IMG/VR virus record: IMGVR_UViG_3300029319_000012
Coordinates: 42,406 to 106,405 of that record
Length of the DNA: 64,000 nt
Reading direction: 5' to 3' (one strand)
Origin: a virus
Shown here one piece after another: positions 50,973 to 61,087 of the stretch. The notes under the pieces were generated by a model. The model was not told where the DNA came from and searched no databases. It worked only from the letters and a program-made list of their open reading frames with translations. The position numbers and the translations under genes were made by a program. Position 1 is the first letter of the stretch, and each line of letters begins with the position of its first letter.

Positions 50973-51524
50973 GTGCAGAAACTATTTGAAAATTGGCGAC
51001 AGTATCTACAGGAAAGTAAAGGCAGCAAATATAAAGAATTGCTAAGCGCCATTCTCAAAGGAGACCAGGCTTTAAGAAAAGAATTTGCATTGTTAATAAA
51101 AAAAGAAGGCGGCTGGTCAAGAGAATTGGCAAATAGATTTGCAGAAAAGCACGGCAATCCAAAAGACGATATATTTGGTGACAAAACAAGACATAAAAAA
51201 ATACTGCCAGTTTTACCTAAATTAGATTATCAAAACTTTGACGATGAAGATTGGAGCAATCTTGATCCTTTTATAATACATTTAAGAGATAGAAAATATT
51301 TACCTGTTCGTAAAAAAGTATTATTAGCCATGGTTAAATATAAAAGATACTGGCGAGATTTAACAACTGATATGGCAAGAGAACTTGATATGCTTCCAGA
51401 GCTTGAAAATACTCAATTATCATATCCAACAGATACTCAAGATAATGGAAAAGTTGACAAGCTTTTAAAAAGCAAAGGTATGGGTTGGGAGCAATTAAAA
51501 AATCAAGTTTTACAAACTAAATAA
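50973..51524 (+). CDS. unknown protein with KLFENWR N-terminal peptide (first of two)
   Basis: The 183-residue, charged, helical product starts at GTG 50973 with MQKLFENWRQYLQE, nearly identical to the N-terminus encoded by the next gene (MKKLFENWRKYVNE). The body of the two proteins is otherwise unrelated. There is no Shine-Dalgarno before the GTG; ACTATTTATAAC stands directly upstream instead. It follows the SbcCD fusion by 12 bases. A shared N-terminal peptide on unrelated bodies suggests a sorting or processing signal, such as the capsid-targeting peptides of T4 internal proteins; that is inference. No family is recognised. Confidence 0.6.
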   Translation: MQKLFENWRQYLQESKGSKYKELLSAILKGDQALRKEFALLIKKEGGWSRELANRFAEKHGNPKDDIFGDKTRHKKILPVLPKLDYQNFDDEDWSNLDPFIIHLRDRKYLPVRKKVLLAMVKYKRYWRDLTTDMARELDMLPELENTQLSYPTDTQDNGKVDKLLKSKGMGWEQLKNQVLQTK

Positions 51525-51535
51525 CTACTTATTAT

Positions 51536-52093
51536 ATGAAAAAACTATTTGAAAACTGGCGAAAGTATGTAAACGAACAATCTTCTGTTGTCCCAGGCAC
51601 TGGACCTGAGGGCACTAGTGGAATTGAGCAAGCAACTCAAAGTTTGATTCGAAAAAAAATACTAGAGCCAAAGCCTAAGTCAGCCGGGTCTAAACAGGCA
51701 GCTGCAAATGTTGAATTTGATCCTGAGTCTTTAGAAGTTGCAACCGACGATTTTGATGATGAGGATGCAGCTGCCGAAGATACGCCTAGCGCCGAGCCTG
51801 AAGCAGCTGCAGGAGGGAGAGAGGCAAGAGAGTTTGTAGTCTTTTCCATAGATACCGATCACCAAGACGAAATAGTGGATGATTCTTATAAAGATATAAT
51901 GGCATCGAGAGATCCCGAAGAAATAAGACTGGCAGCACAATTTGCTCGTATGGGTGAAAAAGCGGCAAAGGACATACTCAAAAAGCAGTATCGTGAATAT
52001 ATGCAAGCAGTTGCCAGCGGTCAGGTACCACTCACCCCTGATGAAATAAGATCCCTGACAAAAGGGACCATGATCGCATCTGAGCCAAATTAG
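51536..52093 (+). CDS. unknown acidic protein with KLFENWR N-terminal peptide (second of two)
   Basis: The 185-residue product has MKKLFENWRKYVNEQ at the N-terminus, then a disordered-looking region rich in Ala, Glu, Pro and Asp (about residues 60-95), and a helical C-terminal half. The N-terminal DNA and protein match that of the preceding gene, but the rest does not. The ATG is directly preceded by AACTACTTATTAT with no Shine-Dalgarno. An internal head protein or scaffold-like protein is one possibility. No known family is recognised. Confidence 0.6.
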   Translation: MKKLFENWRKYVNEQSSVVPGTGPEGTSGIEQATQSLIRKKILEPKPKSAGSKQAAANVEFDPESLEVATDDFDDEDAAAEDTPSAEPEAAAGGREAREFVVFSIDTDHQDEIVDDSYKDIMASRDPEEIRLAAQFARMGEKAAKDILKKQYREYMQAVASGQVPLTPDEIRSLTKGTMIASEPN

Positions 52094-52131: not shown

Positions 52132-52326
52132 ATGGCACAGATGAGAGCATGGCTTGACAAACACGTTGAGCGTTTTATTTCAAGAAAGTTTTTGGCGTGG
52201 GGTACGGCTACATACCTTGTCTATATGAACGCCCTTACGAGCGAAGATTGGGTTGCAGTCACGCTTGCTTATATCGGATCACAAGCACTTGTTGATCTTG
52301 CCACGCAATGGAAACATGGAAGATGA
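52132..52326 (+). CDS. small membrane protein, holin-like candidate
   Basis: The 64-residue product has a basic/amphipathic N-terminus (about 1-20) and two moderately hydrophobic stretches (FLAWGTATYLVYMNAL, then WVAVTLAYIGSQALVDLA) separated by a short acidic turn. This hairpin topology and small size resemble class II holins, which form membrane holes at lysis, but many small phage membrane proteins look alike. A strong AGGAGG lies eight bases before ATG 52132. Its stop overlaps the start of a tiny cysteine-rich gene (ATGA). It begins a run of small genes with possible lysis functions. Confidence 0.6.
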   Translation: MAQMRAWLDKHVERFISRKFLAWGTATYLVYMNALTSEDWVAVTLAYIGSQALVDLATQWKHGR

Positions 52327-52439
52327 AAAATATATTACAAAAAATCTTAAACTTATTTAAAAAGGCTTGCTGCTGTGTAGAGCAGCGCTGCAAAAGCTGT
52401 TGCGCTTGCTGTAAGTGCGTTAGTTGCGAGGGATGTTAA
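52323..52439 (+). CDS. tiny cysteine-rich peptide, 38 aa
   Basis: A frame of 38 codons begins at ATG 52323 in an ATGA overlap with the preceding gene and ends in TAA 52437-52439, whose last base starts the next ATG (TAATG). The product has an amphipathic basic N-terminus (MKNILQKILNLFKK) and then 11 cysteines in the last 23 residues, in groups (CCC, CC, CC and singles) separated by Ala, Ser, Lys and Glu. Coupling to both neighbours argues for translation. The composition recalls metallothionein-like or redox peptides; a membrane-bound metal-binding peptide is possible. No homologue is known to me. Confidence 0.55.
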   Translation: MKNILQKILNLFKKACCCVEQRCKSCCACCKCVSCEGC

Positions 52440-52756
52440 TGAAAATCACAAAACAACGATTAAGGCAGTTAATCAAAGAAGAGCTGGGAAATATTGACAA
52501 AGACGGCGATGCGGATGATGCAGCTGAGTTGCGTGATGAAGGTCAGGAAGTAGAAGAGCTTGTAGGTGATTTAGATTTTTATCATTCTGAGGTGTCTAAA
52601 GATAATAAAGGATTTTTTGCATCTCTAGTTGATATGACAGGCAATTTCTTAGATCGTCGCAAGGATGAGCTAGCTGATGAGTTAAAGCAAGCTTGTATTA
52701 GAGTCTTGCTAGATGCAAAATCAAATGCCTATAAATCAAATTTTCCGTCAAGGTAG
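52439..52756 (+). CDS. unknown small acidic protein with MKITKxRLRxxIKEEL N-terminus
   Basis: The 105-residue product starts at ATG 52439 in a TAATG overlap (in-frame codons upstream belong to the preceding tiny gene). It opens with a short basic helix, MKITKQRLRQLIKEEL, followed by a strongly acidic Asp/Glu-rich stretch (about residues 19-45) and a helical C-terminal half. This kind of N-terminal helix recurs on otherwise unrelated small proteins in marine phages as I remember them. A head-targeting or scaffold-associated role is a guess. It may share translation with the cysteine-rich peptide. Confidence 0.6.
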   Translation: MKITKQRLRQLIKEELGNIDKDGDADDAAELRDEGQEVEELVGDLDFYHSEVSKDNKGFFASLVDMTGNFLDRRKDELADELKQACIRVLLDAKSNAYKSNFPSR

Positions 52757-52767
52757 GAGTGCATAAT

Positions 52768-53163
52768 ATGCTTACTGTTGTTTTTTGGAAAAAACTTTGG
52801 TCTTGGATTAAACACTATTGGTATTTTCCTATTATAATAGGATTAATAATCTTTGCATATATCTCTGGATCATCTGCAAAAGAGAAACTTTTTAAAGTTC
52901 TAACAGATCAAAAAGAAAATCACAAAAAAGAAATTGAATTAATTAACAATACAAATGTTGAAAAAGAAGAAATTAAAAAAGAAATTATTGAAAAACATAA
53001 AGAAGAAATTGAACGTATTGAACAAGAGCACGGCGTTCAAATTCAAGACCTAGAAGAGGAAAAGCAAGAAGAGCTGCTGTCTACTATTGAAGAAAAGAAA
53101 GATAAGCCAGATGATTTAGCAAAAGATATTGCTGCTCTCCTCGGTGCAAAACACATAGAATAG
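52768..53163 (+). CDS. membrane-anchored coiled-coil protein (spanin-like candidate)
   Basis: Start ATG 52768 follows AGGAG by eight bases; a GTG at 52759 in the same frame lies inside the ribosome site and is less likely. The 131-residue product has one N-terminal membrane segment (about residues 14-33, YFPIIIGLIIFAYISG) and a long charged coiled coil rich in Lys and Glu (about 40-115). Such a type II anchor plus periplasmic coiled coil resembles an inner-membrane spanin (Rz), but phage structural and chaperone proteins may look similar. It lies just before a signal-peptide protein that could be its partner. Confidence 0.55.
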   Translation: MLTVVFWKKLWSWIKHYWYFPIIIGLIIFAYISGSSAKEKLFKVLTDQKENHKKEIELINNTNVEKEEIKKEIIEKHKEEIERIEQEHGVQIQDLEEEKQEELLSTIEEKKDKPDDLAKDIAALLGAKHIE

Positions 53164-53173
53164 AAGGTGTAAA

Positions 53174-53632
53174 ATGTTTAAGAAAATTATCGCTGTCATT
53201 GTGTGCGCAATGATGATTATAATTCCAACTAGCGTGTCAGCACAGGAATTGCAAGGTAAAGTTATGTCCCTGGAGTATGATGAAAAAGCTCCCTATGCAG
53301 GCATTCTGCTTGACCCTATCGCAGCATCTAAGATGATTGTTGATAGAAAATACATTTCAAAAGAGATTGAGTTGGAGCTAAGAAAAGAATTTCAAAAAGA
53401 TTTGTCTGATAGAACATTATCACTTAATTTAGTTGAAGCAGAACTACAAAGTCTTCGCGACTTGCATACTAAAACAATTGAGTTGAAGGACAATCAGATT
53501 GATCAGTTGCAAATGGCTCTAAAAGATGAAGTGTCTGATGACCATACGGAGTGGTGGGCACTTGGTGGCGTATTGATTGGCATAGCTCTTTCTGTTGCCG
53601 TGTTTTATGCGAGTGTTGAAGTTGCCAAATGA
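53174..53632 (+). CDS. exported protein with C-terminal membrane anchor (u-spanin-like topology)
   Basis: The 152-residue product has a classical signal peptide (basic MFKK, hydrophobic core to about residue 20, then SVSA before QE) and a C-terminal hydrophobic segment (about residues 127-148, WALGGVLIGIALSVAVFYAS). Between them is a helical, charged region. Export with a C-terminal inner-membrane anchor is the layout of unimolecular spanins, but those carry a lipobox, which is not clear here (Cys11 lies in the hydrophobic core and is not preceded by Gly/Ala/Ser). AGAAGG precedes the start. The next gene overlaps its stop (ATGA). Confidence 0.55.
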   Translation: MFKKIIAVIVCAMMIIIPTSVSAQELQGKVMSLEYDEKAPYAGILLDPIAASKMIVDRKYISKEIELELRKEFQKDLSDRTLSLNLVEAELQSLRDLHTKTIELKDNQIDQLQMALKDEVSDDHTEWWALGGVLIGIALSVAVFYASVEVAK

Positions 53633-59838: not shown

Positions 59839-60459
59839 ATGTCGAAAGAATTACTTCAAGAATATTTTGAACTGTGCCCTGAAGGTCGCTGCCCTGTACA
59901 TGCGCTAAATGAATCAGAAAAGAAAAGCGTCATGGAAGGAGCGGTCTATCTTGTTGGTATATGCCAAAAAGCTGGTACAAAAAATGGTAATGGTAGAGTG
60001 TATAGAAAAGAGACACTGCAGCGCGAAGTTGAAAGATATCAAAACGCAGTTCGCGAACGTCGTTCTTTAGGCGAGCTTGATCATCCAGATGACTCTGTAA
60101 TTAATTTAAAGAATGCCTCCCACCTTGTAACAAAAATGTGGTGGCAAGGCGATAATGTCATGGGTAAAATTGAGGTGCTAGATACACCATCTGGTAAGAT
60201 TTTAAAAGAGCTGGTAAAGTCTGGAGTGAAATTAGGAATTTCTTCTAGAGGATTAGGCTCTGTTTCTAAAAAAGGTGACAAGCTAATGGTTGAGGATGAT
60301 TTTCAATTAATTTGCTTTGATATGGTTTCGGAGCCATCAACGCCAGGTGCCTACATGAATAAAGATTCTAATGTTGATGCATCAATAAATGTCTACTTAA
60401 AAGAAGAGAAAGAAAATAATAATTTAGACAACCTATTTAAATCGATTTTAAAGGATTAA
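59839..60459 (+). CDS. 21: prohead core protease gp21
   Basis: The 206-residue product is the prohead protease of T4-type phages, which cleaves the scaffold, the major capsid protein and internal proteins during head maturation. The catalytic serine protease signatures are visible: GELDHP (His82, about 78-83) and GISSRGLGS (about 133-141, nucleophile Ser). VYLVGICQKAG and NGNGRVY near residues 38-56 are also typical. Its length matches T4 gp21 (212). It follows the terminator, with AAGGA upstream of the ATG at 59839. Cleavage sites in substrates cannot be judged from this sequence alone. Confidence 0.93.
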   Translation: MSKELLQEYFELCPEGRCPVHALNESEKKSVMEGAVYLVGICQKAGTKNGNGRVYRKETLQREVERYQNAVRERRSLGELDHPDDSVINLKNASHLVTKMWWQGDNVMGKIEVLDTPSGKILKELVKSGVKLGISSRGLGSVSKKGDKLMVEDDFQLICFDMVSEPSTPGAYMNKDSNVDASINVYLKEEKENNNLDNLFKSILKD

Positions 60460-60853: not shown

Positions 60854-61087
60854 ATGTCTGAAAAAGTAGTAAATGTGAAAGTTACAGCAAAACAATGCGG
60901 GTATGATATTACAAAGATGATTCGCAGATTTACAAAAAAAGTTAAAAAACAAAGAGTAATTCAAGAGGTGCTCGACCGCAGGTTTTTTGAAAAACCCTCT
61001 AAAAAAAGAAGACTTGCAAGACTTAAAAAGAAAAGAAACGCTCAAAAAGCAGAGCGAGAAAGAAATAAAAAACTAGATATAAAGTAG
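60854..61087 (+). CDS. rpsU: ribosomal protein bS21 homologue
   Basis: The 77-residue, very basic product aligns along its length with bacterial small-subunit protein bS21. A short N-terminal strand (VVNVKV) is followed by a helix with MIRRFTKKVKK (residues 22-32; E. coli has ALRRFKRSCEK), VIQEVLDRRFFEKPSKKRR (35-53; E. coli AEVRRREFYEKPTTERK) and a Lys/Arg-rich tail. bS21 binds near the 3' end of 16S rRNA and helps recognise the Shine-Dalgarno. Copies in marine phages are known from published surveys. It lies among capsid genes, so its expression is expected to be late. A role in biasing host translation is inference. Confidence 0.88.
   Translation: MSEKVVNVKVTAKQCGYDITKMIRRFTKKVKKQRVIQEVLDRRFFEKPSKKRRLARLKKKRNAQKAERERNKKLDIK

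What the first reader, a model, noticed from the sequence alone, without database searches (positions are those of the whole stretch)
52323..52439. Translationally coupled 38-residue cysteine-rich peptide
Eleven cysteines in the last 23 residues follow an amphipathic basic start. The gene is joined to both neighbours by ATGA and TAATG overlaps, which argues against chance. It could be a metal-binding or redox peptide, perhaps attached to the membrane through its first helix, and could act at lysis or during takeover.
Basis: partly seen in the sequence, partly recalled or inferred. Interest (0 to 1): 0.7.

Follow-up and report, generated by a model that had tools for sequence, protein, structure and literature searches.

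The report
Cysteine-packed microprotein family of marine phages
A 38-residue peptide gene with eleven cysteines in a marine T4-like phage is real and belongs to a previously undescribed family, found in dozens of related uncultured viruses, that looks built to hold metal ions and usually sits directly in front of genes whose proteins appear tagged for packing into the virus head.

Summary
In detail: 52323-52439 encodes MKNILQKILNLFKKACCCVEQRCKSCCACCKCVSCEGC, joined to its neighbours by ATGA and TAATG. It is a real gene. About 40 relatives occur in IMG/VR contigs, with consensus MKxxLHKLxNLFNxxHCCCCCGCCxCxxCxGxC (subtype 2). A rarer subtype 1 holds the window protein and three others. Cysteines stay fixed while TGT/TGC codons drift. 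The N-terminal helix, which was not part of the search pattern, is nearly invariant with mostly silent change. An invariant His16 of subtype 2 is Cys16 in subtype 1, an exchange typical of metal ligands. Six contigs carry an AT-hook-like tail (RRRGRPRKKK). No Pfam, PHROGs, NCBIfam or PDB family matches. It occurs in 10 of 27 large related contigs not chosen for it.

The gene moves between genome sites (before terminase, inside the head operon, after primase, beside tmRNA), so a lysis role is not supported. Twenty-one of 33 downstream neighbours carry an N-terminal tag resembling the T4 capsid-targeting sequence (local background 21%), and 27 of 33 are tightly coupled. Best reading: a soft-metal-binding accessory microprotein, made together with putative capsid-packaged proteins. 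Metal binding and packaging are inferred, not shown.

The parts
52323..52439 (+). Cys-rich 38-aa microprotein gene (called C38 here), subtype 1
   Evidence: Translation; one copy only in the 106-kb record; homologues L083, L082, L282, L357 and about 40 more
52323..52364 (+). Residues 1-14, predicted amphipathic basic helix MKNILQKILNLFKK
   Evidence: AlphaFold2 helix 2-14 but low confidence, mean pLDDT 55; hydrophobic moment 0.69, net charge +4; hydrophobic positions 5, 8, 11, 12 conserved in the family
52368..52436 (+). Residues 16-38, Cys cluster CCCVEQRCKSCCACCKCVSCEGC, proposed metal-thiolate site
   Evidence: All 11 Cys kept in L083 with silent codon changes; Cys16 aligns without gap to the invariant His16 of subtype 2
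52132..52326 (+). Upstream 64-aa protein with two hydrophobic segments (holin-like by appearance only), overlaps C38 by ATGA
   Evidence: no family match
52439..52756 (+). Downstream 105-aa protein with N-terminal type-A tag MKITKQRLRQLIKEE, overlaps the C38 stop (TAATG)
   Evidence: tagged genes follow C38 in 21 of 33 loci
50973..51524 (+). Neighbouring 183-aa protein with type-B tag MQKLFENWRQYLQE, T4 capsid-targeting-like
   Evidence: inference
51536..52093 (+). Neighbouring 185-aa protein with type-B tag MKKLFENWRKYVNE
   Evidence: inference
52768..53163 (+). N-terminal TM plus coiled-coil protein (weak Rz-spanin-like match), directly downstream of C38 in L082 and L083
   Evidence: phrog_6197 E=0.0066
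59839..60459 (+). T4 gp21-type head maturation protease, the enzyme that would process the tags
   Evidence: phrog_207 E=4.8e-59

Best explanation
C38 is a translated, phage-specific microprotein. A short amphipathic N-terminal helix docks it to a partner, and its dense Cys cluster (Cys/His in most relatives) folds around a few soft metal ions, Zn(II) or Cu(I), in a metallothionein-like thiolate cluster. It is an accessory gene that moves between sites in marine T4-like phages and is usually made in tandem with a protein bearing a capsid-targeting-like N-terminal tag. The likely role is to buffer, capture or deliver metal (or thiols) during infection or inside the head, rather than to act at lysis. 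Shown: the frame, its conservation, purifying selection, the family, its contexts and its coupling. Inferred: metal binding (from Cys density, invariant spacing and the His16/Cys16 exchange), docking by the helix, and the link to head or early-takeover proteins.
For: Cys positions are invariant while codons drift. The N-terminus outside the search pattern is nearly invariant, with an excess of silent change. Position 16 is His in all 33 subtype-2 sequences analysed and Cys in subtype 1. The family is viral: of 18 exact pattern hits in 85,000 prokaryote genomes only one, L337, encodes it, and that contig is probably phage. It is found in 10 of 27 large related contigs not chosen for it. Downstream genes are CTS-like tagged in 21 of 33 loci against 21% background, binomial 2e-7, with independence of loci assumed. 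The downstream start is within -4 to +1 nt in 27 of 33, against about 26% background. Six contigs carry an AT-hook-like tail RRRGRPRKKK.
Against: No metallothionein or zinc-finger profile matches and no solved structure. Five consecutive Cys is unusual for known metallothioneins. AlphaFold2 gives no fold for the Cys part. No metal, mass-spectrometry or ribosome-profiling data are available. The motif conservation in subtype 2 is partly ascertained by the search pattern; relatives found without it vary in the tail.
Confidence: 0.55

Rival explanations
1. Virion peptide: the N-terminal helix is an uncleaved capsid-targeting signal that puts C38 into the prohead core, so that the Cys cluster, with an AT hook in some relatives, is packed with DNA and injected.
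For: C38 places hydrophobics at 8, 11 and 12, the same register as the type-A (L8, I11, I12, E14) and type-B (W8, Y11, V12, E14) tags of its neighbours. T4 CTS function depends on residues 4 and 7 for targeting and 8 and 10 for processing, and Asp at position 10 blocks processing but not targeting (PMC9026906). In L323 and L298 C38 lies directly after the head protease gene, and in L283 and L297 after another head-operon gene. A gp21-type protease is present.
Against: C38 lacks the Glu needed for cleavage. Its helix conserves His6, Asn10 and Asn13, which the tags do not. Many copies lie outside head genes. A shared amphipathic register is weak evidence.
Confidence: 0.2
2. Leader peptide or attenuator: the run of Cys codons senses cysteine (or Cys-tRNA) and sets expression of the coupled downstream gene, as in mycobacterial polycysteine sORFs.
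For: Run of Cys codons; downstream start within 1 nt of the stop (or overlapping it) in 27 of 33. Precedent: Canestrari et al. 2020, described in PMC9094748.
Against: The amino-acid sequence outside the Cys run is strongly conserved with silent codon drift. There is no excess RNA structure across the junction, mean z 0.08 over 35 loci. In L290, L295, L311 and L354 no protein gene follows (tmRNA in L295 and L311 by ARAGORN, by sequence in the other two). Downstream genes are unrelated to sulfur metabolism. Some members carry an AT-hook-like tail.
Confidence: 0.1
3. Membrane-bound redox or lysis peptide.
For: Amphipathic basic helix; beside a two-TM gene and a TM/coiled-coil gene with a weak Rz-spanin match.
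Against: The holin-like neighbour directly precedes C38 only in the window and L320; conserved polar residues in the helix; no lipobox or signal peptide visible.
Confidence: 0.1
4. DNA- or nucleoid-binding regulator: a Cys/His zinc module with or without an AT hook that binds host or phage DNA.
For: AT-hook-like RRRGRPRKKK tails in L291, L293, L307, L309, L317 and L313; weak Pfam AT_hook match in L309, E=0.18.
Against: Most members, including the window's, lack the tail, and the Pfam score is below the cut-off.
Confidence: 0.15

Closest known systems
Metallothioneins (for example mammalian MT alpha domain, bacterial SmtA)
   Same: Very short, about 30% Cys, CC-x-CC and CxxC spacings, no large hydrophobic core; 10-12 Cys would suit 3-4 Zn (general knowledge).
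   Different: No profile match; a distinct amphipathic helix; five consecutive Cys in most members; a conserved aromatic (Phe12); phage-encoded.
Mycobacterial polycysteine regulatory short ORFs (Canestrari et al. 2020; see PMC9094748)
   Same: Small ORF with a Cys-codon run, coupled to a downstream gene.
   Different: Here the whole peptide is conserved, most copies have a Shine-Dalgarno, downstream genes vary or are absent, and no RNA structure signal is found.
T4 internal-head-protein capsid-targeting sequence (IPIII; PMC9026906)
   Same: N-terminal amphipathic 10-14 residues with similar hydrophobic spacing; next to tagged genes and, in some phages, in the head operon.
   Different: No LxE-type cleavage site; followed by a Cys cluster instead of a basic protein.
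AT-hook proteins
   Same: R-G-R-P core with basic flanks at the C-terminus of some relatives.
   Different: Absent from most members and from the window; below the Pfam cut-off.

Membership tests
Metallothionein | Match to a Pfam or NCBIfam metallothionein profile | tested here: not met
   No hits for the window protein and two relatives at E<=1, five relatives at E<=10, 35 members in NCBIfam
Metallothionein | Short chain with about 25-35% Cys in CC/CxC/CxxC arrangements | tested here: met
   11 of 38 residues are Cys; relatives have 10-12
Metallothionein | Binds several d10 metal ions in thiolate clusters | not testable with these tools
   Needs native MS; the Cys/His exchange at position 16 is indirect support
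Cysteine-responsive leader sORF | Translationally coupled to a downstream gene in all members | tested here: not met
   27 of 33 coupled, but L290, L295, L311 and L354 have no protein gene directly after
Cysteine-responsive leader sORF | Only the Cys run is constrained, not the rest of the peptide | tested here: not met
   N-terminal helix conserved with 48% silent differences against 19% neutral
Cysteine-responsive leader sORF | RNA structure at the junction | tested here: not met
   Mean folding z 0.08 in 35 loci
T4-type capsid-targeting sequence | Hydrophobic-xx-hydrophobic-hydrophobic core at the N-terminus | tested here: met
   L or I at 8, L11, F12 in the window and family, same register as neighbour tags; also expected of other amphipathic helices
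T4-type capsid-targeting sequence | Prohead-protease site [L/I]-x-E after the core | tested here: not met
   Position 14 is K in the window and mostly S/N/D in relatives, not E
T4-type capsid-targeting sequence | Presence of the protein in mature heads | not testable with these tools
   Needs virion proteomics
Rz/holin lysis cassette | Constant association with holin, endolysin or spanin genes | tested here: not met
   The gene occurs beside primase, site-2-protease-like, head-protease and tmRNA genes in other phages
AT-hook protein | RGRP core with Pfam AT_hook score above cut-off | tested here: not met
   Only tailed relatives have the core; L309 scores 12.2 bits against 17.4

The most novel reading that the evidence does not exclude
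A phage-only class of metal-thiolate microprotein that is packaged into or delivered with the virion through an uncleaved capsid-targeting helix, so that each particle carries or strips soft metal ions at infection.
Probability: 0.12. Interest if true: 0.9.

Novelty: new variant of a known kind. Interest (0 to 1): 0.6.

Why it matters
It is a clearly selected gene family, present in about a third of the large related marine phage contigs tested, that none of the profile, structure or literature searches here found described. Its pattern is simple enough to test with a synthetic peptide. If it binds metal, it would show that T4-like marine phages carry their own metallothionein-like peptide, bearing on open questions of metal economy and host takeover in the sea. 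The tagged neighbours also give a route to predict head-packaged proteins in these phages.

Tried and rejected
Degenerate cysteine patterns worked, although most hits of the loose pattern are antisense or low-complexity frames and were discarded by eye. Genome-collection hits other than L337 are such frames. A lipoprotein signal was considered and rejected: there is no hydrophobic core before KKAC. Palmitoylated cysteine-string analogy rejected: it needs eukaryotic enzymes. The RNA hairpin attenuator was tested and not supported. AlphaFold2 was uninformative beyond the helix, so no fold search was run. The nearest cultured phages by terminase (Flavobacterium phage immuto, Microcystis phage Mel-JY01) have no copy. 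Literature searches for phage metallothioneins and for the motif itself found nothing relevant.

Full report
Observation. The frame at 52323-52439 is exactly as described: 38 residues, 11 Cys in the last 23, ATGA overlap with the 64-aa gene before it and TAATG with the gene after it. The window is part of a 106-kb IMG/VR record that holds one copy. No other stop-free stretch of the window has more than 7 Cys in 23 residues.

Is it a gene? Yes. Relatives of the neighbouring 64-aa gene brought in two phages with the same peptide: L083 (MKSLLQKFLNLFKRACCCIEECCKACCACCKCVSCGGC) and L082 (MKSLLHKLANLFNSKHCCCCCGCCVCANCSGTC). Between the window and L083 dN is 0.14 with dS saturated; all 11 Cys are kept while six of their codons change silently between TGT and TGC. 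Degenerate cysteine patterns then found about 40 relatives, and a profile search of whole contigs found more that do not fit the pattern. The N-terminal part, not used in the patterns, is nearly invariant (H6, L8, N10, L11, F12, N13, H16) with a clear excess of silent codon changes. Most copies have their own Shine-Dalgarno (33 of 42). One contig has a decayed tandem copy beside an intact one (L361).

Two subtypes. Subtype 2, the majority, reads MKxxLHKLxNLFNxxHCCCCCGCCxCxxCxGxC; subtype 1 (window, L083, L282, L357) reads MKxLLxKxxNLFKKACCCxExxCKxCCACCxCxSC. Counted from the start Met without gaps, His16 of subtype 2 is Cys16 in subtype 1, the exchange expected of a metal ligand. Some relatives end in RRRGRPRKKK, an AT-hook-like tail; the Pfam AT_hook score is below cut-off.

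Distribution. Of 27 large related contigs chosen by neighbour genes and not for this peptide, 10 carry it; contigs are often incomplete, so this is a lower bound. The two nearest cultured phages by terminase lack it. Among 85,000 prokaryote species genomes only one contig, in a Halobacteriovorax MAG, encodes it, probably a phage contig. No Pfam, PHROGs, NCBIfam or PDB relative was found, and no paper contains the motif.

Context. The gene sits in different places: before the terminase module (window, L082, L083), between a holin-like gene and a tagged gene (L320), inside the head operon (after the head-protease gene in L323 and L298, after another head-operon gene in L283 and L297), after primase (for example L202, L181, L309), after a site-2-protease-like gene (L245, L319, L299), beside tmRNA (L295, L311). 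Hence it is an accessory gene that moves, and a lysis function is not indicated. What is constant is the gene behind it: in 21 of 33 loci its product begins with one of two tags, type A (MKITKxxLxxIIKEE) or type B (MKxLLxxWRKYLxE), against 21% of all genes in these loci. In 27 of 33 the next start lies within -4 to +1 nt of the stop, against about 26% for other pairs. Further copies found later (L355, L356, L357, L359) are also followed by a tagged gene. These statistics treat loci as independent, which overstates significance for related phages.

The tags. Both share hydrophobic-xx-hydrophobic-hydrophobic-x-Glu, with L/I/V three residues before the junction in type B. This is the logic of the T4 capsid-targeting sequence, where residues 4 and 7 target and 8 and 10 govern cleavage (PMC9026906). 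A gp21-type protease is encoded at 59839-60459. That the tagged proteins are packaged in the head is inference. C38 has the same hydrophobic register but no Glu; in T4 Asp at that place still allows targeting without cleavage. So packaging of C38 is possible but weakly supported.

Mechanism. The best-supported reading is a soft-metal-binding microprotein: helix for docking, Cys(/His) cluster for Zn or Cu(I). A Cys-codon leader peptide was tested as rival: tight coupling fits, but the conserved peptide sequence, absent RNA structure, variable or absent downstream protein genes and AT-hook-like tails argue against it. AlphaFold2 predicts only helix 2-14 with low confidence, as expected for a peptide that would fold around metal.

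Verdict. Real, conserved and undescribed in the sources searched; function inferred. Interest 0.6.

Noticed in passing
window 50973-51524, 51536-52093, 52439-52756; many related loci: Two recurring N-terminal tags, MKITKxxLxxIIKEE and MKxLLxxWRKYLxE, head otherwise unrelated proteins (about 21% of genes near C38). They resemble T4 capsid-targeting sequences and may mark head-packaged proteins.
   Followed up: partly
L249:10272-10313, L266:1642-1683, L270:5859-5900: A different 13-residue peptide, MC[KST]CCKCC[NS]C[NT]CC (8 Cys), recurs before a Shine-Dalgarno and next gene in other phage contigs; possibly a second Cys-rich microprotein family.
   Followed up: partly
L295:242-593, L311:302-611: Phage-encoded tmRNA (tags ANDNVANYALAA and ANDNVAFDYALAA) directly downstream of the Cys-rich gene; the same tmRNA-like start follows it in L290 and L354.
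   Followed up: partly
L245, L288, L318, L319, L299 (gene upstream of C38): A phage gene that looks like an RseP/site-2 protease (HELGH motif, MLTFLGIIVLVIFVHELGHYVAARAVG) precedes C38.
   Followed up: no
L313, gene 12 nt downstream of C38: Protein starting MENIVGLGTAGCNIAEKF looks FtsZ/tubulin-like at its N-terminus.
   Followed up: no
window 60854-61087: Ribosomal protein S21 homologue in the head operon (phrog_21469), also annotated in Microcystis phage Mel-JY01 at the same relative place.
   Followed up: partly
window 52768-53163 and 53174-53632: A pair of conserved proteins: N-terminal TM plus coiled coil (weak Rz-spanin match), and signal peptide with C-terminal TM. Present in most of the relatives read before the terminase; candidate envelope or lysis pair.
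   Followed up: no
L361: A truncated second copy (MKKILNKKHCCCCCGCCKWPIP...) lies just upstream of an intact one, suggesting duplication and decay.
   Followed up: partly
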